Shown: piece after piece, positions 10,566 to 24,871 of the stretch | Position numbering within the stretch: the stretch's first letter is position 1 | Layout of the letters: every line of letters starts with the position of its first letter | IMG/VR virus record: IMGVR_UViG_3300020411_000048 | Coordinates: 1-24,931 of that record | Strand: one strand, 5' to 3' | Source: a virus | DNA: 24,931 nucleotides | The notes under the pieces: model-generated | Databases searched by the model: none | Told to the model about the DNA's origin: nothing | Seen by the model: only the letters and a program-made list of their open reading frames with translations | Program-made: the position numbers and the translations under genes

Positions 10566-11384
10566 TTACCTCATTTTAGCAGGGCGGAAACCTTTTTTAG
10601 CGATACCCACACCACGAACTTTTGGTTTTGATGCTTTCGCCTTTGTGGTCTTTTTAACAGCCCCACCTTTTTTCATATCTTTTCTACGAGTAAGTCCTCG
10701 TTCCCTATTGAGGTAATCCCGTAAAGATAATCCTGACTTCTCTAACTCTTCTTTGGTAACAGCAGCTTTTCGCTCACCTTTTTTGTCAATGAAAGTACGT
10801 TGCCCTTCCTTTTTTGCCGCCCCAACTGTTCGCTGTGGCCCTGACTTAGGTGGTTTAGGTGGGGTTTTAGGATCAGTAGGGCGTTTAGGTTTACGTGATG
10901 CCGTTACCTTTGTATCTGGCGTTTTTGTTTTTTGCGTTTTCACCCTAGGTGGTGGAGTGCTACCGGAACGATTCTTTTCCCCAGTAGGTATGCCTGTTGC
11001 TGTAGGTTTTGGTTTTTGTTCACTATCTAGTAGGTTTGCCGCCCCTCCGACTACACCTCCTGTGCCAACCACAGCACCCGCACCTGTACGTATTCTTCTC
11101 TTACCCCTAGCCATTTGAGCAGCTTCGTTTTCCGCTCTTCTTGCGGCTTGAGCAGCTTTTTTGTCTACTTGATTGAGAGGCATACGTCCACCTCCCGGCA
11201 TTTTACTGCGCGGAATATCACGAGGTTTTGTAGGTACGTCCCCACCCATACCTGCTTTCTCTTCAGCTTTAGTAACTTTTCTTCTGTTCTTACCCGCTGC
11301 TAAAACTGCTTCACGACCATATTTTTTAGCCGCTTTCGTAAAACCATGACGGGCTAAATAGGCTAATATTGCTGGTAGTGCCAT
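10566..11384 (-). CDS. Large basic low-complexity protein with the shared GVGIAKKGFRPAKMR tail
   Basis: The 272-residue product is strongly basic. Residues 1-45 form a possible helical head (ILAYLARHGFTKAAKKYGRE). Residues ~96-118 are a glycine/valine-rich weakly hydrophobic stretch (TGAGAVVGTGGVVGGAANLL). A long Pro/Lys/Thr linker (PKRPTDPKTPPKPPKSG) follows, then a short helical segment (TKEELEKSGLSLRDYLNRER) and the tail RGVGIAKKGFRPAKMR. The tail is nearly the same as that of the 105-residue EF-hand-like protein at 11879-12196. No enzyme motif is seen. A nucleic-acid-binding or scaffold-like virion protein is the best guess. A strong AGGAG site precedes the ATG at 11384. Confidence 0.6.
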   Translation of the reverse strand: MALPAILAYLARHGFTKAAKKYGREAVLAAGKNRRKVTKAEEKAGMGGDVPTKPRDIPRSKMPGGGRMPLNQVDKKAAQAARRAENEAAQMARGKRRIRTGAGAVVGTGGVVGGAANLLDSEQKPKPTATGIPTGEKNRSGSTPPPRVKTQKTKTPDTKVTASRKPKRPTDPKTPPKPPKSGPQRTVGAAKKEGQRTFIDKKGERKAAVTKEELEKSGLSLRDYLNRERGLTRRKDMKKGGAVKKTTKAKASKPKVRGVGIAKKGFRPAKMR

Positions 11385-11878: not shown

Positions 11879-12196
11879 CTACCTCATTTTACAGGGACGA
11901 ACACCTTTTATAGCGATACCCGCACCGCGAACTTTACCGCCTTTTTTGTAGCCTTTTGGCTTCTTCTTGCCACCGACAGCACCGCCTTTCATCATACCCA
12001 TTGGCATCTTGCCACCAACAGCACCACCTTTCATCATACCCATTGGTCTTCTACCACCTCTGGCACCACCTTTAGCACCACCTTTGGTAGTCATACCACC
12101 ACCATACAATTTGACTCCACGGCCTTTAAGAACATCGGCCTGTGTAACCTTACCGTCCTTGTTTAAATCAGGAAATTTACTACCCTTCTTTTTCAT
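11879..12196 (-). CDS. Small basic protein with an EF-hand/dockerin-like loop and the shared RGAGIAIKG tail
   Basis: The product is 105 residues from the ATG at 12196, chosen because GAGG lies 6 nt upstream; the frame is open further to a GTG at 12208. Near the N-terminus DLNKDGKVTQAD is a 12-residue calcium-loop pattern (D-x-N-x-D-G-x-V-x-x-x-D) as in EF-hand and dockerin proteins. The middle is glycine/lysine-rich with two copies of MGMMKGGAVGGK. The end is RGAGIAIKGVRPCKMR, nearly shared with the 272-residue protein. The gene overlaps the end of the 230-residue gene upstream. It may be a calcium-sensitive, DNA-binding or tag-carrying virion component; from memory the layout recurs in marine phages, function unknown. 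Confidence 0.7.
   Translation of the reverse strand: MKKKGSKFPDLNKDGKVTQADVLKGRGVKLYGGGMTTKGGAKGGARGGRRPMGMMKGGAVGGKMPMGMMKGGAVGGKKKPKGYKKGGKVRGAGIAIKGVRPCKMR
11966..12049 (-). repeat. 42-bp tandem repeat (two copies)
   Basis: Units lie at 11966-12007 and 12008-12049 and encode the two MGMMKGGAVGGK(M/K) blocks. The copies differ at only a few bases, suggesting recent in-frame duplication. Confidence 0.85.
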
Positions 12197-12872
12197 CATT
12201 ATCCTCACTATACAAGTTGTTAAATACCCTAGCGGTATCCCATACGTACCCTACATCTTCCTTAGAATTGTAAGTATTCTGGTTTGGTTTGAAGTCTGGA
12301 GCACCTTCTCCTGTTTCAAACCACGCTGGGTGAGTCACTCGCACCCTGTTGTTAGGTAATGCGACTATATTACCAGTGTATTCACCAGCATCAAGAAGCT
12401 CTAACACATGGCTTTGTTTATGTTGTGCGGGATCATCTGCGACTTCACTGTCAGTGTAATCTACTGTGAAATAGTACTTTGCAGGGTAGAACTCACCGTC
12501 AACCTTAGCTATCCAAGGCGCAGGAGTGGCTCTGCTTATTTGATACACCGCATGATGGTGTGACATACAATCCCAAGGTTGTGCGGCCCATACAGGTAAT
12601 TCAGTAGGCCACTCCTCTAAAGGTGTGTCCCCCACTAAAGCTGTTATAGGCATTCTAGCCCACATAGCTCCACCATGTACGTTAGGATCATCAGTGTCAT
12701 ATGACTCACAACCAGTAAATATAACCTGAAAACTAAGGCATCTGTTGGGCATACACGTTACTGCAACAACCATAGCGTGTAGAAACTCACCATGATACCG
12801 CTCATTGTTGACTGTGTACTCTCTACGAACCCACGCCTTAAAATAGGGTATATTCGATTGTAAGTACGCCAC
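12180..12872 (-). CDS. Conserved marine-phage protein, unknown function (GTG start)
   Basis: The 230-residue product (MAYLQSNIPYFKAWVRREYT, NERYHGEFLHAMVVAVTCMP, GGAMWARMPITALVGDTPLE, AAQPWDCMSHHHAVYQISRA, DDPAQHKQSHVLELLD, IVALPNNRVRVTHPAWFETG) belongs to a family I recall as highly conserved in marine phages, always within the structural operon. It has many W, H and C residues (AQPWDCMSHHH is notable for possible metal binding) but no enzyme family I can name. Translation starts at GTG (12872), directly after the upstream TGA, with GGAGA 7 nt before it. The 3' end overlaps the next gene. It is unlike the surrounding basic proteins, being acidic and globular. Confidence 0.75.
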   Translation of the reverse strand: MAYLQSNIPYFKAWVRREYTVNNERYHGEFLHAMVVAVTCMPNRCLSFQVIFTGCESYDTDDPNVHGGAMWARMPITALVGDTPLEEWPTELPVWAAQPWDCMSHHHAVYQISRATPAPWIAKVDGEFYPAKYYFTVDYTDSEVADDPAQHKQSHVLELLDAGEYTGNIVALPNNRVRVTHPAWFETGEGAPDFKPNQNTYNSKEDVGYVWDTARVFNNLYSEDNDEKEG

Positions 12873-16061: not shown

Positions 16062-16511
16062 CTAAGTTCCATTACCGAAAGAAACCTTCGTCTTCCTATC
16101 ATTAAATATAGGCATACGAGGATCACTTTCTCTCATAAGGTTGTTATCCACTGATTGCATCTGCGAGTTTGTTTGTGTCTCGTAATAATCATTACGTTCT
16201 TCAACTAACTCAACAGGAGCTTTACAAAGCAGCAAACCACCAATAACTACGTTGTCCTTGAACCTTTCTTGCTCAATGTCAACGAGAGTTATTTCAGGGT
16301 GATCTACAGCTTTCACTGGTTCCCAACCTTCTCGTAATTTAGAGGAAACGTTAGTAGCATCAATAGTCCCACGAGAACTTACACGTATCCAACGAAACGC
16401 ATACCCTTCTTCAGGCTCTGGCGATGGAAGTGTTTCCGGTCGCTGCCAATGCCTTTTCCGAGTTGTTTTTTCTCGTGTTTCTAACTCTCGGTCTAACCGA
16501 TTATCAGCCAT
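16062..16511 (-). CDS. Conserved head-region protein, unknown function
   Basis: The 149-residue product has a charged arginine-rich N-terminus (NRLDRELETREKTTRKRHWQ), a folded middle (GYAFRWIRVSSRG, SSKLREGWEPVKAVDHPEIT, NVVIGGLLLCKAPVELVEER) and a C-terminal part DPRMPIFNDRKTKVSFGNGT. The order suggests a small mixed domain flanked by tails. I recall similar proteins between scaffold and capsid genes in marine phages, function unknown. It may be a minor head protein or capsid-assembly factor. Its ATG overlaps the end of the scaffold gene by 8 nt, so the two are coupled. Confidence 0.65.
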   Translation of the reverse strand: MADNRLDRELETREKTTRKRHWQRPETLPSPEPEEGYAFRWIRVSSRGTIDATNVSSKLREGWEPVKAVDHPEITLVDIEQERFKDNVVIGGLLLCKAPVELVEERNDYYETQTNSQMQSVDNNLMRESDPRMPIFNDRKTKVSFGNGT

Positions 16512-17523
16512 TACTATTCCTCATATCTATTGCAACCTGTTTGGCGTACTGTGCGGGAGTCAACCCTAAACGTTTTGCCAGAACTAATTGTGTTTGCGTT
16601 AACCTAATTTTCTTAGGTGCTGTGCTCCGCGTAGCGGGGGCAACCACGTTGTCTGGTTTTGGTCTTCGAGTTTGCACCTCCTGTGCTTCTACTCCCCCGA
16701 ACAATTCGGGGAATGTGTTTTGCATACGAGAATTTATTTTCTCGTAGTATTCATCGCTACTAACAGTAACATTTTCATTTTCTGTTAACTGTTTGTGTAA
16801 CCCAAGGGCAAAAGCCGTTTCGGGTTCATAGTTTGGATTACCAAACCACGTGTTCTCATTTCTCCATGCTACCGCTTTAGGGTCAGGAGCAGCCTGAGTT
16901 GGCTGTTGTGTAGACGTAGTATCTGATACTTCTACAGGTTCTTCAAGCGAAGTTAAACGTTCGGCTTTTAATTTCGCATTAGTAAATCGTTCTTGAGCAT
17001 TTAACAATGCCTCAGTGTCACCTGATTCGTGAGCTACCTTAAACGCTTCTTTAGCTTGTGAAAGCTCTCCTTCAACACTATGTTTAGCTTGTTCAAATAA
17101 AACTTGCTGGTTGCTACTAACAGTTTCTTGAAGTGCTTTTTTCTCTTCCAATATACCTTGGAGTGCTCTTTCAAGCTCGTCACGCTCTCTTTCAGCCGTT
17201 TCTTTAGCTCTACGCTCATCGTGGTAGCCTTTGCTGAAATGTCTAATGCGTTTTTGCACCTTAGCATTATAGGTTCCAAGTTCTTCTTCAGTGATGTCTT
17301 CAGGCGGTTCAGACGGGGTACGACCCCTGTCGGCTTCTGGGGTGTCATCTACAACCTCTATTTCTGGTTCTATTTCTACTTCGGTTTCTTGTTCTTTTAC
17401 TTGAGTCTCTGTTCCACCAGATAAATCCACCTCTATCTCGCTAGAAGGTTCTATTTCAATCTCCGTGGTAACTTCATTGTCCTCATCGTGAGGAAACTCA
17501 TATTCTACTTTTTGAAATGGCAT
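16504..17523 (-). CDS. Capsid scaffolding protein
   Basis: The 339-residue product is built like a phage scaffold. It has an acidic disordered N-terminus (about residues 1-80; EIEIEPSSEIEVDLSGGTE), a long charged coiled coil (about 95-185; ERRAKETAERERDELERALQ, LEEKKALQETVSSNQQVLFE), a Q/T/A/P linker and a short basic helical end (KKIRLTQTQLVLAKRLGLTP, QYAKQVAIDM) that would bind capsid subunits. Placement between portal-side genes and the capsid gene agrees. It should be lost from the mature head. The start at 17523 has AAGGAG 5 nt upstream. No protease domain is fused to it. Confidence 0.8.
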   Translation of the reverse strand: MPFQKVEYEFPHDEDNEVTTEIEIEPSSEIEVDLSGGTETQVKEQETEVEIEPEIEVVDDTPEADRGRTPSEPPEDITEEELGTYNAKVQKRIRHFSKGYHDERRAKETAERERDELERALQGILEEKKALQETVSSNQQVLFEQAKHSVEGELSQAKEAFKVAHESGDTEALLNAQERFTNAKLKAERLTSLEEPVEVSDTTSTQQPTQAAPDPKAVAWRNENTWFGNPNYEPETAFALGLHKQLTENENVTVSSDEYYEKINSRMQNTFPELFGGVEAQEVQTRRPKPDNVVAPATRSTAPKKIRLTQTQLVLAKRLGLTPAQYAKQVAIDMRNSNG

Positions 17524-17532
17524 GATGACTCC

Positions 17533-17910
17533 TTACGCTCTAGTTATGCCAGAAGGATCAGGAACGACAGCTTCTATAGAATCATCGTTCATAAGACGGT
17601 ACTCAGTACCACCTATCTTAAATCTTGTACCTGAATTAGCACGAAACATAACGTAATCACCTTGTTTACACCAAGCACCTGTGGGGAAACGATCTTTATC
17701 AGAATACGCTTGATCTCCCATGTCTACTACTAATCCAATAATAGACATAATATGCTCTTCGTGCATTGTCCTTGAGGACTTTACAAGGTCACTATCGTCA
17801 TATGTCTCCTTAATATGTGGGAGGGCTACAAGCACTCGATACCCTGCGGGTAAAGGGAGCAACTCTTCCAGTTGTTCATCAGTCAAGATTTCAGCTTCAC
17901 TCATCGTCAT
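17533..17910 (-). CDS. Phage GroES-like (Cpn10) co-chaperonin
   Basis: The 125-residue product aligns by eye with GroES. An acidic N-terminal helix of ~20 residues comes first. Then GYRVLVALP (residues 23-31) corresponds to the first GroES strand, and a polar stretch at ~33-49 (KETYDDSDLVKSSRT) sits where the GroEL-binding mobile loop lies, with DLV in place of the IVL tripeptide. Next come IIGLVVDMGDQAY (GxVxxVG region), CKQGDYVMFRANSGTRFKIG (VGDxVxF strand), and YRLMNDDSIEAVVPDP, matching the GroES end in which a Met-Ser-Glu-Ser-Asp-Ile motif leads to AIV. Co-chaperonins cap GroEL; phage versions such as T4 gp31 adapt the host GroEL to fold the phage capsid protein. It lies between portal and scaffold. 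Start is at 17910 or, two codons in, at 17904. Confidence 0.8.
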   Translation of the reverse strand: MTMSEAEILTDEQLEELLPLPAGYRVLVALPHIKETYDDSDLVKSSRTMHEEHIMSIIGLVVDMGDQAYSDKDRFPTGAWCKQGDYVMFRANSGTRFKIGGTEYRLMNDDSIEAVVPDPSGITRA

Positions 17911-18094
17911 CTTCCATGTAATTGCGCGAGAGGTCTTTTACAGTGCGTATACAGGTGTCCAGACCTCGAATGTAACCTGTAGTCTCTTTGTACTGGGAGA
18001 AATCTTTTGCTCCCCCAGACGCAAGGGATTCTATAGCAGAGTGCTTATCTTCTTCAAACTTTTTAACAAGTACTTGAAATATGGTATCTGCCAT
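17897..18094 (-). CDS. Small helical protein downstream of the portal gene
   Basis: The 65-residue product (ADTIFQVLVKKFEEDKHSAI, ESLASGGAKDFSQYKETTGY, IRGLDTCIRTVKDLSRNYME) is a helical hairpin by eye with an acidic end (EDDDE). Its ATG shares one base with the portal stop (TAATG) and its end overlaps the GroES-like gene by 14 nt, so it is tightly coupled. I recall similar small proteins with GxAxDYxxYxxxxGxIRG cores in phage portal-capsid regions, function unknown. It could be an assembly cofactor of portal or head. Confidence 0.75.
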   Translation of the reverse strand: MADTIFQVLVKKFEEDKHSAIESLASGGAKDFSQYKETTGYIRGLDTCIRTVKDLSRNYMEDDDE

Positions 18095-20541
18095 TATTCT
18101 TTATTACCTTCTTGTAAAATTCGCATAATGTCCATATCGGTAGCAATTTTTGCTTGTTCAGTATCTAAAGCTAATTTTACTCCTGCTTTTCTAGCTTCTA
18201 ACTCTAACTCTTTCTCATCCAACTGAAGTTCTTTTGCTTCTGACAATGCGTCTATAACATCTTTCTGCTCTTTGCGCTTTTGTTCCGCTACTTTCAACTG
18301 TATCTCTGCAGCGTCTTTTTGACCTTTTTGCTGCAATTCTTGCGCTTTCATAGCGAGTTCTTGCTGTTGTATCTGGATTACAGGGTCTTGCGCTTTCTGC
18401 ATGGCTTGCTGCTGTGCAGCCTGTTGCTGATGTTTCTGGGTTAGCTGCTGTCCTGCTTGGGCAACCAACCTAGCTAGAGGTACTTCAACCTCTTTCGGTA
18501 GCTCATCGTTGGGTGCAGGTAACGGTGCTCCCAACTGTTCTTCGATCTGCTGCCTGTATAAGAACCCGTAGTGCTCCATCATATGAGCCTGAAGTCCTGA
18601 CATAATACGCTGTGCCGTAGGACTGTTACCTAAAGCCTGTATGATCATGGGATCGCGCATAAAGGTTTCGTGCGCTGTAATGTGAGCCGCGTGATCCTGA
18701 TAGATAAACGCTTTGAGGGGCTTATTCATCAACGCATTCATGTTCTCACTGATAGGATCTACCGGCTCTGCATCATCAAGAGTTGGTACAAGCTTGTCGG
18801 CGTTCTTTATACCTAACACCTCGATCATCTGCCTGTGTAGCTGTGGCAGGTTGTATATCTGCGGTGCTTGCTGTGCCATCTGCAAAACTGCCTGATACTG
18901 CACTACCCGCTGGGCCATTGTGGAGCTATTCGGATCGCTGACAGGTATGACATCTACCATGTCATAGTCCATCTGCCTTGCACTCATTTCTCCACGGTTG
19001 GGTTGGTACCCATACTCAGCAGGAGCATATGCAGCCATGATAGCCTTGAGAAGCTTAAACTCTTGCTTCATAGCGTAGTGAACACGGGCTTGCACTGCAG
19101 CCATAGGCTTTAGAGTACGTTCTAGCAAGGCCAAGGTAGTACCTACAGGTGCATTAGCCGACATATCAGAGATGTTCATGTCACTAATAGCACCGAGCCT
19201 GCGGCCTTCTTGCGTTATTGTCTCCAAAAGCTTCATTAACGTCTGACTAGGCTCCTTGTAGGGGAGTGTCATAATATTATCTTTGATGCTGCCAGACGGT
19301 ACGTCTACGTCTTTGAACTCTCCCGGTTCTATCGGCGTATCGTCCCCTGCTATGCGTAGCCCACGAGACTTTAGACCACCGGGAAGGTTAGATAGTGTCC
19401 CTGCGTCTACAAGCTGTCGTATGAGGGACGTACCTGCTTTAGCGTACCCCCCTACGATATGTATCAACCCAAGGCCGTAGAAGCCAAATCCCGGTACATA
19501 CACGTAATGTACGAAGTGTTGCCGCTTTAATTGGAGAGGATCTTCCTCATTCCAGTTCCTACGTATGGCTAATACCTTGTTCGTACCCCTTTCTATAGTA
19601 ACTACGTAAGGTTTAGCTAAATCTTCTTCGTCATCTATCCCTTCTATGTTAGTTGTGACATGAATCTCGTAAATAGCGTAACGATCATCGTCTGTCAGCG
19701 AAAATCCATCGTCTTTCGCCTTCTGTTCTTCAATATCGTTGTGATATGCGCGAGGAGCACCCAATTCTTCGTCTTTGTAGAACCCATTGGCCTGTAATCG
19801 CTGTAATTCGTTCTTAGTTTTACGCATAACATGGGTTACACGCTCTGCAGTCTCTATATTAGACGCACCGTAAGGCACAATAACGTCTTCAGCGGGTATA
19901 TAAACTGCAACTTGTCGCCCTAAATTAGGATCATAGTAGACTTTTTTGAACGCAGACCCTGATAAACCAAGGCTATACAACAATCTTTCGTGTTCTGACC
20001 GATATTCAACCATTTTTTCGGTCAATTCGTAGTTCATGTCAGCCCGAACACGGTCAGCGGCCTCCATTTTCTCCTTAGTCTCTTCCCCGATAACCTTAGT
20101 TCGTACTGGGCCAGCAGCGGGGAAGGTTTCACTCATAGATTCAGCTTGGAAACGAATAGCTGATTCGGCTAAAACGTTAGAATATACGCCGCAAGCACCT
20201 TCCCAAGGCTCAGATCGCTCTTCGATATTGAACCCAAGCACCTTCAGACCCTTTACATAAGTCTCTGCCCACTCTTTTCGAGCATCAATGTCGGACTCCA
20301 CAGCTTCAAGAAGGTCGTCAGCTAATATAGATAGCTGATCATCCTCTAAAAACTCCGCTAAATTAGCGTCAAAGCTGGTCATATTGCCTACATTAGCGTC
20401 AGGTATAAGGGTTATCTCCATAGACCCGTCATCCAGTACCACCATTTCTGGATCAACAATTTCTATCTCTAACCCTTCCTCAGACTCAGCAGCTTCTTCC
20501 ATACCTTCTGGTGCTGCGTATAACCCTTTTTCAATAGCCAT
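18094..20541 (-). CDS. Portal protein
   Basis: The 815-residue product has the features of long phage portals: an acidic start, a clip/stem region including WEGACGVYSNVLAESAIRFQ and AESMSETFPAAGPVRTKVIG, a wing with DRYAIYEIHVTTNIEG, the VPGFGFYGLGLIHIVGGYAK-AGTSLIRQLVDAGTLSN helices and ANAPVGTTLALLERTLKPMA. The last ~140 residues (from about 675) are a glutamine/lysine/glutamate-rich coiled coil, probably the barrel or tail that reaches into the head. The portal is the dodecameric ring through which TerL pumps DNA. It follows the HEYRH-motif gene with a one-base TAATG overlap. The length is above that of most portals, largely because of the coiled coil. Confidence 0.9.
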   Translation of the reverse strand: MAIEKGLYAAPEGMEEAAESEEGLEIEIVDPEMVVLDDGSMEITLIPDANVGNMTSFDANLAEFLEDDQLSILADDLLEAVESDIDARKEWAETYVKGLKVLGFNIEERSEPWEGACGVYSNVLAESAIRFQAESMSETFPAAGPVRTKVIGEETKEKMEAADRVRADMNYELTEKMVEYRSEHERLLYSLGLSGSAFKKVYYDPNLGRQVAVYIPAEDVIVPYGASNIETAERVTHVMRKTKNELQRLQANGFYKDEELGAPRAYHNDIEEQKAKDDGFSLTDDDRYAIYEIHVTTNIEGIDDEEDLAKPYVVTIERGTNKVLAIRRNWNEEDPLQLKRQHFVHYVYVPGFGFYGLGLIHIVGGYAKAGTSLIRQLVDAGTLSNLPGGLKSRGLRIAGDDTPIEPGEFKDVDVPSGSIKDNIMTLPYKEPSQTLMKLLETITQEGRRLGAISDMNISDMSANAPVGTTLALLERTLKPMAAVQARVHYAMKQEFKLLKAIMAAYAPAEYGYQPNRGEMSARQMDYDMVDVIPVSDPNSSTMAQRVVQYQAVLQMAQQAPQIYNLPQLHRQMIEVLGIKNADKLVPTLDDAEPVDPISENMNALMNKPLKAFIYQDHAAHITAHETFMRDPMIIQALGNSPTAQRIMSGLQAHMMEHYGFLYRQQIEEQLGAPLPAPNDELPKEVEVPLARLVAQAGQQLTQKHQQQAAQQQAMQKAQDPVIQIQQQELAMKAQELQQKGQKDAAEIQLKVAEQKRKEQKDVIDALSEAKELQLDEKELELEARKAGVKLALDTEQAKIATDMDIMRILQEGNKE

Positions 20542-21434
20542 TAACTATTCCTCATAGCTTTTTTCAATCTATCTAACCAACTTGGCTCTTCACGTTCCGA
20601 TCTATCTAAAAAGCTAGGTTCTTCTATGTTGGTTTTGTAAAAGTTACTTCTTCTAAAATCATCTACTGTCATTCTATCTTTAAACGGTGCATCTTCTTCT
20701 ACTCTCGCTGCTCTACGCCTACCAGTTGAAACAATATTTTGTATGAGCGGTATATTTAATAAAGTCTTAACACTTTGAGATAACTCTTCGAGCGTAGAAT
20801 CTGCCCCTATTGCATAATAAATGGTTTTTGCTTTATCTCTATCAGTTTTGCTTACTAAACGATTGCTATGTATTGCATCACTAAGTAGCTCTACTGACGC
20901 TAGTAATTCTTTTTTATTTTTAGACCCCATAAGATCTTGAAATCTGTTCATTATTTCGCTTGTCCCGAACATTCGGTCTTTATCTATACCTTCAATACCT
21001 TGCCTATGTCTGTACTCATGGGCTTGTATACGAGGATTAGCGTTTTCTACACCAAAAACATTAACAGTGTCTGGGTCTAAAGGAAAATCAACGATTTCAT
21101 AACCTACTTGCATTGCCTTGGTTCGTCCCTCTGGCGCATTTTTAGGAACGTAAATTCCCTTCGTAGGCCACGAACCACCTCTAAAAGTATGTAGTCTAAA
21201 TCTACTTGGGTCTACAAGATCAGCCTCTTCTGGCATACGCGCTTGTACCTCTGATTGAAACCGAATATCTCCCATCTGCATGGAGGCAAGAAACTCCCTC
21301 TGCTGCTGGGGAGACAGCCCAGAAGCGTAGTTACGTAACGAACGGCGACTAGAAGGAGATACCCGCGCTAAATAATTTTCAAGCTCCGGTTCTAATGCTG
21401 TTATACCTTTTTCTTTACCAGAAGCACTAGCCAT
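20541..21434 (-). CDS. Putative zinc metalloprotease-like protein between terminase and portal
   Basis: The 297-residue product carries IQAHEYRHRQG: H139-E140-x-x-H143 is the HExxH zinc-protease signature, followed 17 residues later by E160 (FGTSEIMNRF), a possible third ligand. The N-terminal ~60 residues are helical (SSRRSLRNYASGLSPQQQRE), a beta part follows (RLHTFRGGSWPTKGIYVPKN), and the C-terminus holds a direct repeat, EEPSFLDRSEREEPSWLDRL (271-290). It is tied to TerL and portal by TAATG overlaps on both sides. It could be a head-maturation or portal-processing protease; the motif is visible, the activity is inference. It is unlike the usual ClpP- or U35-type prohead proteases. Confidence 0.6.
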   Translation of the reverse strand: MASASGKEKGITALEPELENYLARVSPSSRRSLRNYASGLSPQQQREFLASMQMGDIRFQSEVQARMPEEADLVDPSRFRLHTFRGGSWPTKGIYVPKNAPEGRTKAMQVGYEIVDFPLDPDTVNVFGVENANPRIQAHEYRHRQGIEGIDKDRMFGTSEIMNRFQDLMGSKNKKELLASVELLSDAIHSNRLVSKTDRDKAKTIYYAIGADSTLEELSQSVKTLLNIPLIQNIVSTGRRRAARVEEDAPFKDRMTVDDFRRSNFYKTNIEEPSFLDRSEREEPSWLDRLKKAMRNS

Positions 21435-22984
21435 TAATAATATCCGCCTCGTTTCTGTTTGAAGTAGCGCATTTCTTCCGGTTCATCTGTCGGTAGACGA
21501 ATGAAGCCCCCCTGTCGGAACCGCATAAGTGCCATAACGGTACTATCCACGAGGTCATCATGGCTCATAAACGGGAACCCTGCAATCTCTTCTATGACCT
21601 CTTCAGCCCATCGTGTTGCAGGCATCCATACCATACCGGATGCTACGATATCTGCAACTGAGTTTAATCTTGCTAGTTTATCACCAGATCCCCTATGAGG
21701 TGTATATTCTTGTACTGGTAGTCCCATACGCCGCATCTCCTGATACAACGCTGTACCTGCACTCTTCTTCTCCACAATAAACGCATCAGGTTCCCAGTCC
21801 CTGTACTCGTCCATCGCCAAGTCCTTTAGCTCTGGAAACTCCAGCCGCTGCTTAATACTGTTAAGCAGAATAATATGGTAGGCGTTCTCGTCCTCGTTCA
21901 TAAACACCCCCCACGTGGTCAGCGCGGTATAGTCAGCGCGATTGTGGGTTTCTGCCGCTGCGTCCAGTGACATGATAATGTACTCACACATAGGTGGATT
22001 CTCATTCCCCCATGACTGCCACCACTCACGTTTAATAAGTGCAGCTTCTTCTGCGGTAGGTTCCTGCTGGTACTGGGCGTTCCACTGGAATGTCGGCATA
22101 GATGCCTTCGTCCGTAGAAGCGCGTTCAAGTCAAAGAACTGAGGCCACAGGGGTTTTTGTACAGGTTTACCTTTCTTATCTGTCAAATCCAGTATCGCTG
22201 GGAACTCCACAATCTCATACTGGTCAGATAGGTCATTATTCACCATGTCCCGTGTCACACGCCCTGTCAGGTCATCCATGTGCCAACGGGTCTGTATAAT
22301 GGCGACACGACCTCCGGGCATCAAACGGGTACGAGCACCAAAGGTAAACCACTCGTAGGCTTTCTCAAATACCTCAAAGTTACCGTTAATCACATCCTGC
22401 TCAGAGTGAGGGTCATCTACCAACAGTAGATCCGCACCCCTACCAGCGATAGAGGAGCCTATACCACAGGCATAGTACTCACCGCCCATACTGGTGTTCC
22501 AACGTCCAGCCGATTTGGAATCAGCGGATAACGCCACAGTAGGGAATATAGACCGATACTCATCAGTCGCAATGAGGTTACGTACCTTTCTACCAAAGTC
22601 TACAGCCAGATCCGTAGTGTGCGACACCATCATCACTTTTTTATTAGGGTTCCGCCCCAGAAACCACGCTGGGAAGTAAATAGATACTAATTGTGATTTT
22701 CCGTGGCGGGGCGGAATATTGACGCAAATCCTGTCTTTGTTTCCTTGCTCTATATCCATGAGCATACGTGCTAATATACGGTGGTGTTTACCCACAATAT
22801 AATCGGGTTGCATACGTTTACAGAACTCGATCAGGTCATTAAACGCAAGCTCATTCTGCTGCCTAGATGATAATTCATCAATAATACGGTCAATCTCAGC
22901 AACTTCTTCAGGAGAGAACGAATCCAAATTATCGAGCATCTGCTGTATCTCTTCTTCAGAGAAATCTAACGCAGCATCAGTCAT
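21434..22984 (-). CDS. terL: Terminase large subunit
   Basis: The 516-residue TerL has an N-terminal ATPase with P-loop IPPRHGKS (residues 90-97), a SHTTD segment (121-125) and Walker B LLLVDDPHSE (186-194, D190-D191). The C-terminal RNase H-like nuclease shows its three acidic sites: D341 in IIMSLDAAAET, E405 in AFIVEKKSAGT and D476/D477 in SHDDLVDSTVMALMRF. The RHGKS P-loop is the form used by the Terminase_6 group. It cuts phage DNA and pumps it into the procapsid through the portal. The gene overlaps the small terminase by 8 nt and the HEYRH-motif gene by 1 nt. Length is normal for the family and all key residues are present. Confidence 0.95.
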   Translation of the reverse strand: MTDAALDFSEEEIQQMLDNLDSFSPEEVAEIDRIIDELSSRQQNELAFNDLIEFCKRMQPDYIVGKHHRILARMLMDIEQGNKDRICVNIPPRHGKSQLVSIYFPAWFLGRNPNKKVMMVSHTTDLAVDFGRKVRNLIATDEYRSIFPTVALSADSKSAGRWNTSMGGEYYACGIGSSIAGRGADLLLVDDPHSEQDVINGNFEVFEKAYEWFTFGARTRLMPGGRVAIIQTRWHMDDLTGRVTRDMVNNDLSDQYEIVEFPAILDLTDKKGKPVQKPLWPQFFDLNALLRTKASMPTFQWNAQYQQEPTAEEAALIKREWWQSWGNENPPMCEYIIMSLDAAAETHNRADYTALTTWGVFMNEDENAYHIILLNSIKQRLEFPELKDLAMDEYRDWEPDAFIVEKKSAGTALYQEMRRMGLPVQEYTPHRGSGDKLARLNSVADIVASGMVWMPATRWAEEVIEEIAGFPFMSHDDLVDSTVMALMRFRQGGFIRLPTDEPEEMRYFKQKRGGYY

Positions 22985-23624
22985 CGTATTCTTCGTCTTC
23001 GTCGTTTATGCCAAGTTCTTCATCCACATCTATATCAAGAACTACGGCATCTTCCACATCTTCTACAACCTCACCCGCTACAAGCTTCTCCAGCTTGCCT
23101 TTCAATTTAGTACGTAGGTCATCTGTGGACTGATGTGTAATAGTTATTTCTGACTTTTCGGAGAATAATCCAACGTCAGATATCTTACCAAGTAACTCCA
23201 ACGCTCTCATACGTATGCGTGGATCATCATTGTCAGATTCTATCAACAGCTTGTTGGTAACTAGGTTGCGTATATGCACAGAACTCTCTACAACAGACTG
23301 CCCGAACTCCTTTAGTATGGCATCAGTCAGCAATAAAGAGGCGGGTGTTAACGTAGCGGCTCGCTTTGATGTCACCTTTTTAGACGTATTTTCAGGGTCT
23401 TCGGCGTAAGCGGCTACTAACTTAGCGGCATTATCCTGATCTTCTTTGGTAGGTTCTACCTCTAGCCCATGCTCCGCCAAATCCATAACGGTATTAGCTG
23501 CGGCATCCGCCCTGTCCTTTAAGTCCAGAATAGGCTCAGATTCGGGGATTTCCACCCCTACCTCGGGTTTGACATGTAATGTCATCAAATGTTCGCAGGC
23601 GTAACCGTAATTCGGTTTATACAT
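22977..23624 (-). CDS. terS: Terminase small subunit (putative)
   Basis: The 215-residue product has a central conserved block (IRNLVTNKLLIESDNDDPRI at 118-137, MRALELLGKISDVGLFSEKS at 139-158, then ITITHQSTDDLRTKLKGKLEK) that I recall from small terminase subunits of marine phages. It ends in a strongly acidic tail, about residues 185-215. Small terminases bind the packaging site and regulate TerL. It is first in the operon, immediately before TerL, and overlaps it by 8 nt. The start is uncertain: neither the ATG at 23624, which directly follows an A7T7 tract, nor the in-frame ATG at 23585 (MTLHVKPEVG) has a clear ribosome site. Confidence 0.75.
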   Translation of the reverse strand: MYKPNYGYACEHLMTLHVKPEVGVEIPESEPILDLKDRADAAANTVMDLAEHGLEVEPTKEDQDNAAKLVAAYAEDPENTSKKVTSKRAATLTPASLLLTDAILKEFGQSVVESSVHIRNLVTNKLLIESDNDDPRIRMRALELLGKISDVGLFSEKSEITITHQSTDDLRTKLKGKLEKLVAGEVVEDVEDAVVLDIDVDEELGINDEDEEYDD

Positions 23625-23911: not shown

Positions 23912-24871
23912 ATGTCTAAAGGTAAAAAGGTCATTGCTTCCAGACCTACTAAAGGGAAGCGTTATGATGCACAGGAACGTGAGACTCTCGCGAGTCAAAT
24001 TGATACTTGTGTTAAGACCGACGTAGGTAATGCAAAGAACATTGCCGAGGCGGTCAAGGATATGGATGTGCTAAGTCTTATCGGGCCGGATGAGACTAAC
24101 CCAAATAAGCTTTTTGGTTACAAGCCATCGCAGATCCGCCACACTGCAGATACCTACAGGGCTGTACGTTGTTCAATGAAACTGTCGATTCTAGAACACT
24201 CTGGAAAGTATGAACGGACCAGAGAACTACTAGAAGAAGTGGTTAAGTTTTTCAACACGTCGGGCAAGAAAAACCCGTGCAGTCAGATGCTGGTAGCGAA
24301 AACCGAAGGTAATGTTATCAAACAGGAATTGCATGATAATGCCACCGAGGGATTCGTTGAGGTCTGGAACCGTAGCAGCAATCTACAGATAACTCTGGCA
24401 GAGTTAAAAAAAGATTATGGTGATTTACAAAAGCACGCTGATACGAAAATTGGCAGATGGGCCGAACTAGTGGCGAAACGTACTACCATACTGGAAGATC
24501 AGGATGTGCATACTACGTTACAAGGTCAGCCTGTAACTCTTACAGGGCAACGTGTAGAAACCTACGCTGACCCGATCTGCAGGGCATACTTTGAAGCCAT
24601 CGAGGCCGACAAGGTAAAAGAGGCCGAACGCAGACGCAAGCTTACTGACAAGCAAAAAGGTTTAGATTCTATAAAATCTGAGATCGAGAAGATCGATACT
24701 ATTATTGATCAGCTTGACGGTGGTAAGCCTGCCATTGGCAAATGGACAGACGACAGTTCGATTGCCATATGTGATGCATGGCGAGGTGTTAAGTTTGCTC
24801 TTCAGATCGTGGAAGAATCCATGAAAGAAGGTAAGACAGTAACAGCCGCCCAGATGAAAAAGTCTAAGTAG
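23912..24871 (+). CDS. Rightward gene of unknown function with coiled-coil segments
   Basis: This 319-residue protein is the only plus-strand gene. It has a basic N-terminal tail (SKGKKVIASRPTKGKRYD), a helical middle with YKPSQIRHTADTYRAVRCSM and REL-LEEVVKFFNT, a charged helix near 160-180 (ITLAELKKDYGDLQKHADTK), a second charged helix at about 228-265 (AIEADKVKEAERRRKLTDKQ) and a lysine-rich end. No family is recognised and no catalytic motif stands out. A GGAG site 6 nt before the ATG and a strong terminator right after the stop make it a self-contained transcription unit, divergent from the virion genes. An early, regulatory or DNA-associated role is possible; this is speculation. Confidence 0.8.
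   Translation: MSKGKKVIASRPTKGKRYDAQERETLASQIDTCVKTDVGNAKNIAEAVKDMDVLSLIGPDETNPNKLFGYKPSQIRHTADTYRAVRCSMKLSILEHSGKYERTRELLEEVVKFFNTSGKKNPCSQMLVAKTEGNVIKQELHDNATEGFVEVWNRSSNLQITLAELKKDYGDLQKHADTKIGRWAELVAKRTTILEDQDVHTTLQGQPVTLTGQRVETYADPICRAYFEAIEADKVKEAERRRKLTDKQKGLDSIKSEIEKIDTIIDQLDGGKPAIGKWTDDSSIAICDAWRGVKFALQIVEESMKEGKTVTAAQMKKSK

What the first reader, a model, noticed from the sequence alone, without database searches (positions are those of the whole stretch)
20541..21434. HExxH zinc-protease-like protein coupled between large terminase and portal
HEYRH at residues 139-143 is a metalloprotease signature, with E160 as a possible third zinc ligand. The gene shares single bases with terL and portal on either side, so it is co-translated with the packaging motor. 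No usual prohead protease is seen in the operon. It may be a new class of head- or portal-maturation protease, or a former protease turned structural.
Basis: partly seen in the sequence, partly recalled or inferred. Interest (0 to 1): 0.65.

Follow-up and report, generated by a model that had tools for sequence, protein, structure and literature searches.

The report
Zincin-like cargo between terminase and portal
A marine phage carries, between its DNA-packaging motor and portal genes, an optional gene for a probable zinc-dependent protease that most close relatives lack, so it is more likely an accessory protein (perhaps carried in the particle and injected into the host) than a protease needed to build the phage head.

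Summary
The 297-aa gene (20541-21434, minus strand) has HEYRH at 139-143 and overlaps terL and portal by one base each. The zinc-site reading is supported: in 23 aligned sequences (relatives 24-45% identical), H139, E140, H143 and E160 are 4 of only 8 invariant positions; an AlphaFold2 model (pLDDT 80) gives strands, then the HExxH helix, then the E160 helix, in zincin order. However, no profile library and no fold search links it to a known peptidase.

The maturation-protease reading is not supported. None of the 78 closest terL relatives with a readable junction (terL 83-93% identical) has this gene, and six 55-62 kb relatives lack it anywhere; most join terL directly to portal. The site is a variable slot: 52 of 155 sampled loci carry something there, falling into 44 clusters. 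These include five other clusters with HExxH (0.07 expected by shuffling), a PcfJ protein and an LPD23 polyvalent protein. Many share a short Gly-Gly C-terminal tail.

Best reading: a small, unprofiled zincin-like protein in an interchangeable cargo slot, probably a virion-delivered or late accessory protease, similar in kind to polyvalent-protein MPTases. Catalysis, packaging and target are untested.

The parts
20541..21434 (-). 297-aa HEYRH (zincin-like) accessory protein
   Evidence: ORF and translation; family of about 30 loci; dN/dS 0.17-0.22 for five of six pairs of relatives, 0.67 for the near-identical L111/L114 pair
21006..21020 (-). HEYRH motif, residues 139-143 (predicted Zn ligands H139 and H143, general base E140)
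   Evidence: invariant H, E, H in 23 rows; lies in helix 134-145 of the model
20955..20957 (-). E160, predicted third Zn ligand
   Evidence: invariant in 23 rows; lies in helix 158-169
21207..21212 (-). D75-P76 of the conserved N-terminal block (P76 invariant in A7; D75 invariant in A3)
21432..21436 (-). TAATG overlap of terL stop and gene start
20539..20543 (-). TAATG overlap of gene stop and portal start
21434..22984 (-). terL (516 aa), upstream neighbour
   Evidence: phrog_38 E 8e-106, Terminase_6C
18094..20541 (-). portal (815 aa), downstream neighbour
   Evidence: phrog_1216 portal E 1.6e-32

Best explanation
The gene encodes a small zincin-like metallopeptidase: an N-terminal helical region, a beta-sheet, an active-site helix with HEYRH and a second helix with E160, so that H139, H143 and E160 would hold a zinc ion and E140 activate water. 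It is an accessory protein inserted at a variable cargo slot between terL and portal, made late together with the packaging genes. Most likely it is packed in the head or delivered with the DNA and cleaves itself or a host or competitor protein, as proposed for MPTase domains of phage polyvalent proteins. Shown: sequence, residue conservation, accessory distribution, slot variability, purifying selection. Predicted: fold and metal site. Inferred: proteolysis, late timing, packaging, target.
For: H139, E140, H143 and E160 are 4 of 8 invariant columns in 23 rows; the other four are D56, F59, P76, G93. Members found only by the N-terminal pattern Q[MHQ][GSA]D[FI][ER]FQ keep HE[YFI]xH and E (L119-L132, L143). 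AF2 model with 23 rows: pLDDT 79.6, pTM 0.75, strands 79-127, then helix 134-145 (HEYRH), then helix 158-169 (E160), the element order given for polyvalent MPTases in PMC5512222. Gene absent in 78 of 78 closest terL relatives with a readable junction and in six 55-62 kb records. Slot contents: 103 empty, 52 occupied of 155; 44 clusters, 5 of 42 non-family clusters with HExxH against 0.07 expected, 0 of 500 shuffles reach 5; LPD23 in L176; PcfJ in DSL-LC04. C-terminal GG tail on 20 of 44 slot clusters and on six family members. dN/dS 0.17-0.22 in five of six pairs.
Against: No Pfam or PHROG family reaches significance for P0001, no PDB sequence match, and Foldseek finds no zincin (best E 0.8 in PDB, 0.2 in BFVD). 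Model coordinates could not be read, so the geometry of the three ligands is unchecked. The usual small residue three after the gluzincin Glu (E/HxxA/F/T/S/G, PMC7213743) is not kept (mostly N, Q or I here). The window protein itself lacks the GG tail seen on other slot proteins. Packaging in virions is not shown for any slot protein. Profile-profile comparison with the other HExxH slot families aligns only the motif. The slot sample is redundant and partly drawn by similarity.
Confidence: 0.55

Rival explanations
1. Late-made zincin-like protease that stays in the producing cell (host protein turnover, superinfection exclusion or help in lysis) and is not packaged.
For: In L120, L121, L130 and L122-L128 the family sits beside or near an M15 endolysin-like gene; the window protein has no GG tail.
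Against: Neighbouring slot contents look like polyvalent, injected-type proteins (LPD23, PcfJ, very large HExxH proteins); six family members carry the same tail as unrelated slot proteins.
Confidence: 0.25
2. Head- or portal-maturation protease specific to this lineage.
For: Position next to portal, and zincin residues.
Against: Absent in 78 of 78 closest relatives with a readable junction and in six 55-62 kb relatives whose portals are about 73-74% identical; the slot is filled by unrelated proteins in others; the family also occurs away from the portal junction.
Confidence: 0.07
3. Metal-binding but non-proteolytic protein: the zincin core serves as a structural or DNA- or protein-binding module.
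For: In ArdC the metalloprotease activity is not needed for its function (PMC7213743); no significant fold match.
Against: The general base E140 is invariant along with the ligands, which a purely structural zinc site would not need.
Confidence: 0.1
4. Chance HExxH in an unrelated helical protein.
For: No match to any peptidase profile.
Against: 0.26% chance per shuffle in P0001 and invariance across 23 rows at 24-45% identity, including the HEYSH, HEFNH and HEIGH forms.
Confidence: 0.03

Closest known systems
Zincin-like MPTase domains of phage and plasmid polyvalent proteins (Iyer et al. 2017, PMC5512222)
   Same: HExxH helix followed by a Glu helix after a beta-sheet; carried by terminase-portal phages as accessory cargo; slot neighbours include LPD23 and PcfJ proteins.
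   Different: Small (297 aa), mostly single-domain; no Pfam MPTase-PolyVal match; own conserved block (Q..D..F, DP, G) before the motif; the paper passages read do not describe a terL-portal slot.
ArdC gluzincin domain (PMC7213743)
   Same: HExxH plus Glu on the next helix; acts in the recipient cell in conjugation.
   Different: No ssDNA-binding N-terminal domain detected; Glu-helix small residue not kept; no sequence match in the PDB.
HTVC023P-type pelagiphages and relatives (HTVC023P, HTVC027P, 023Pt_psg01, DSL-LC04)
   Same: Same terL, portal, GroES, capsid order; non-conserved genes between terL and portal.
   Different: Their slot genes are unrelated in sequence; terL only 45-47% identical; no HEYRH family member found by tblastn in the phage collection.
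Prohead proteases (serine-protease types; own knowledge)
   Same: Encoded near portal and capsid.
   Different: Serine proteases without HExxH; conserved with their capsid, unlike this gene.

Membership tests
Gluzincin-type zinc metallopeptidase | HExxH on an active-site helix | tested here: met
   invariant H, E, H in 23 rows; model helix 134-145
Gluzincin-type zinc metallopeptidase | Third ligand Glu on the next helix | tested here: met
   E160 invariant; helix 158-169; spatial contact not measured
Gluzincin-type zinc metallopeptidase | Glu-helix motif (E,H)xx(A,F,T,S,G) | tested here: not met
   N, Q, I or L at that position in most members, T in a few; definition from PMC7213743
Gluzincin-type zinc metallopeptidase | Zincin fold recognised against solved structures | tested here: inconclusive
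   element order fits, but Foldseek PDB has no hit at E below 0.001
Gluzincin-type zinc metallopeptidase | Zinc bound and peptide bond cleaved | not testable with these tools
   needs purified protein
Polyvalent-protein MPTase | Match to a polyvalent MPTase or LPD profile | tested here: not met
   no significant Pfam match for family members; PF18818 search of the record empty, with no positive control ringing
Polyvalent-protein MPTase | Multidomain protein | tested here: not met
   297 aa, mostly one domain; L116, L118 and L143 add a shared C-terminal module
Polyvalent-protein MPTase | Packaged and delivered into the host | not testable with these tools
   needs virion proteomics
Head-maturation protease | Present with its capsid and portal in all close relatives | tested here: not met
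   0 of 78 closest relatives with a readable junction have it; six 55-62 kb relatives lack it
Head-maturation protease | Cleaves scaffold, capsid or portal | not testable with these tools
   needs N-terminal mapping of virion proteins

The most novel reading that the evidence does not exclude
The terL-portal junction of this broad group of marine podovirus-like phages is a dedicated slot for interchangeable virion-delivered effectors that share short C-terminal tags (GG-hydrophobic tail, or a 90-aa module) acting as a head-loading signal, and the HEYRH family is a new peptidase family using that slot.
Probability: 0.3. Interest if true: 0.75.

Novelty: new variant of a known kind. Interest (0 to 1): 0.5.

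Why it matters
If right, a fixed address in abundant marine phages marks proteins that are likely delivered into hosts, so effectors can be listed by position rather than by homology. The HEYRH family would be a peptidase family not covered by the Pfam or PHROG profiles used here. The shared tails make a testable guess at a head-loading signal outside T4-like and phiKZ-like systems.

Tried and rejected
Head-maturation reading: rejected by distribution. Chance motif: rejected by conservation. The first AF2 run with 3 rows was poor (pLDDT 48) and is not used. tblastn of P0001 and three divergent members in annotated phages: no match. Genome-contig scan: no relative among 102 pattern matches. Weak Pfam hits (DUF7639 E 0.0015, DUF6973 E 3.7e-4, Tox-MPTase2 E 0.08) are below their cut-offs; DUF6973 lies in the C-terminal module, not in the zincin part. 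LEEL at 215-218 was considered as an alternative third ligand (as in ArdC-like EEL motifs, own knowledge) but is lost in L119, L120 and others. The first hhalign run used a wrong (global) setting and was repeated locally: only the motif aligns. Apparent HExxH-less relatives L144, L147 and L152 are joined to the family only through the C-terminal module, and L046 only through a 17-aa tail, so they do not contradict conservation. Ascertainment: part of the family was found by the pattern HEYRHRQ; the conservation claim for H/E/H rests on the members found by the other pattern and, for E160, on all.

Full report
What is in the window. The window is a 24.9-kb uncultivated virus record. On the minus strand it reads: a weak terS candidate (22977-23624, phrog_51 E 0.07), terL, the gene in question, portal, a 65-aa ORF, GroES-like, an acidic coiled-coil-like protein, two small proteins, major capsid protein and later tail-region genes. 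The gene is an open 297-aa frame with HEYRH at 139-143. Both junctions are TAATG, so it shares one base with each neighbour.

The gene is optional. terL of the window finds 80 IMG/VR loci with 83-93% identical terL. In 78 of them the start of portal can be read (77 by tblastn, L042 by its ORF). In 74 nothing lies between: terL runs into portal directly or within about 15 bases. L003, L009, L046 and L067 carry other, unrelated genes there. None carries this gene. The empty junction is often the same TAATG (for example L002, L005, L007), so the overlap is the ancestral coupling and any inserted gene can inherit it. Six records of 55-62 kb with terL 84-86% identical (L014, L018, L025, L039, L041, L060) have no family member anywhere. 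They have portals 73-74% identical, so heads are built without this gene. This excludes a general maturation role and leaves only a lineage-specific one, which I judge unlikely.

It belongs to a real family. Homologues were found through portal neighbours (L082, 38%) and then by pattern scans: about 30 loci, most between terL and portal (window, L082, L111, L112, L114-L116, L118, L119, L143, and L110 just before portal), others upstream of portal (L133-L137), between an M15 endolysin-like gene and a terL (L122, L124), beside such an endolysin (L120, L121, L130), or downstream of portal (L131, L132). Five of six pairs have dN/dS 0.17-0.22; the near-identical pair L111/L114 gives 0.67 on few changes. 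Alignment A7 (23 rows, 24-45% identity to P0001) has eight invariant columns: D56, F59, P76, G93, H139, E140, H143, E160. Part of the family was fetched with a pattern containing HEYRHRQ, which would bias H/E/H; but L119-L132 and L143 were fetched with an N-terminal pattern and still have HEYRH, HEYSH, HEFNH or HEIGH, and E160 was in no pattern.

Fold. With 23 rows AF2 gives pLDDT 79.6 and pTM 0.75: helices 16-64, strands 79-82, 93-96, 105-110, 113-118, 123-127, helix 134-145 with HEYRH, helix 158-169 with E160, then a helical tail. This is the order described for zincin MPTases in polyvalent proteins (N-terminal helix, sheet, HExxH helix, Glu helix; PMC5512222). But Foldseek finds no solved or viral structure at a useful E-value, I could not read the coordinates, and no Pfam, PHROG or PDB sequence match is significant. 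The residue three after the Glu that is small in gluzincins (PMC7213743) is mostly not small here. So 'zincin-like' is well supported by residues and element order, not by fold recognition.

The slot. Portals of more distant relatives were used to sample other genomes. Of 155 loci with both terL and portal, 103 slots are empty and 52 occupied (sample redundant, and family loci were drawn on purpose). The 66 slot proteins fall into 44 clusters. Five of the 42 clusters outside the family have HExxH where shuffling expects 0.07 and never gives more than 2 in 500 trials: L067 HELDH, L105 HEAAH, L167 HEIQH, L176 HEGQH, L160 HEILH. L176 also has LPD23, a polyvalent-protein domain, and DSL-LC04 has a PcfJ protein there. 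Local profile comparison between the window family and the others aligns only the motif, so these look like separate zincin-type proteins. 20 of the 44 clusters end in a short Gly-Gly-hydrophobic tail; among other ORFs the strict pattern is found in 11 of 884, several of which also lie just upstream of portal, and in HTVC027P and 023Pt_psg01 the strict tail appears only on a slot protein (part of 023Pt_psg01 not covered). The window protein lacks the tail; six family members have it. A second, 90-aa C-terminal module joins HExxH members L116, L118 and L143 with HExxH-less slot proteins L144, L147 and L152.

Mechanism. Shown: optional gene, constrained sequence, zincin residue set, variable slot with many HExxH and polyvalent-type proteins. 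Inferred: late expression with packaging genes, loading into the head, delivery with DNA, and cleavage of itself or a host protein. PMC5512222 proposes both self-processing and host-directed roles for such domains; nothing here tells which. A late intracellular protease that is not packaged is the main rival.

Known or new. It may work like polyvalent MPTases but fails two of their defining features (profile match, multidomain build), so I do not file it as a member. The family and the slot with shared tails were not found in the papers searched, which is weak evidence of novelty, since the library is open-access only and the searches few.

Noticed in passing
terL-portal slots of L003, L009, L046, L067, L105, L119, L164, L173, L176, L181, L195, L204, L210, L212, L213, L223; also L133-L137: Unrelated slot proteins share a short C-terminal tail of the form GG[ILVMR][AVGMRTS]x[LMI], almost absent from other ORFs. 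Possible head-loading signal.
   Followed up: partly
L118, L116, L143, L144, L147, L152 (C-terminal 90 aa): A C-terminal module is shared by HExxH and non-HExxH slot proteins; weak DUF6973 match in L118.
   Followed up: partly
window 17533-17910 (-): GroES-like co-chaperonin gene between portal and capsid genes, also in HTVC023P, HTVC027P, DSL-LC04, Pag-Yong1 and Caulobacter phage RW.
   Followed up: no
window 10566-11384, 11879-12208 (-): Nearby Lys/Gly-rich proteins end in near-identical tails (KKGG...RGxGIAxKGxRPxKMR).
   Followed up: no
window 16504-17523 (-): Acidic, coiled-coil-like 339-aa protein between GroES and capsid genes, phrog_28737 of unknown function; candidate scaffold.
   Followed up: no
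window 23912-24871 (+): 319-aa ORF on the opposite strand upstream of the terminase genes, no significant family match.
   Followed up: no
L009:3466-4473: 335-aa slot protein without any family match, ending in the same kind of tail as L003, L046 and L119.
   Followed up: no
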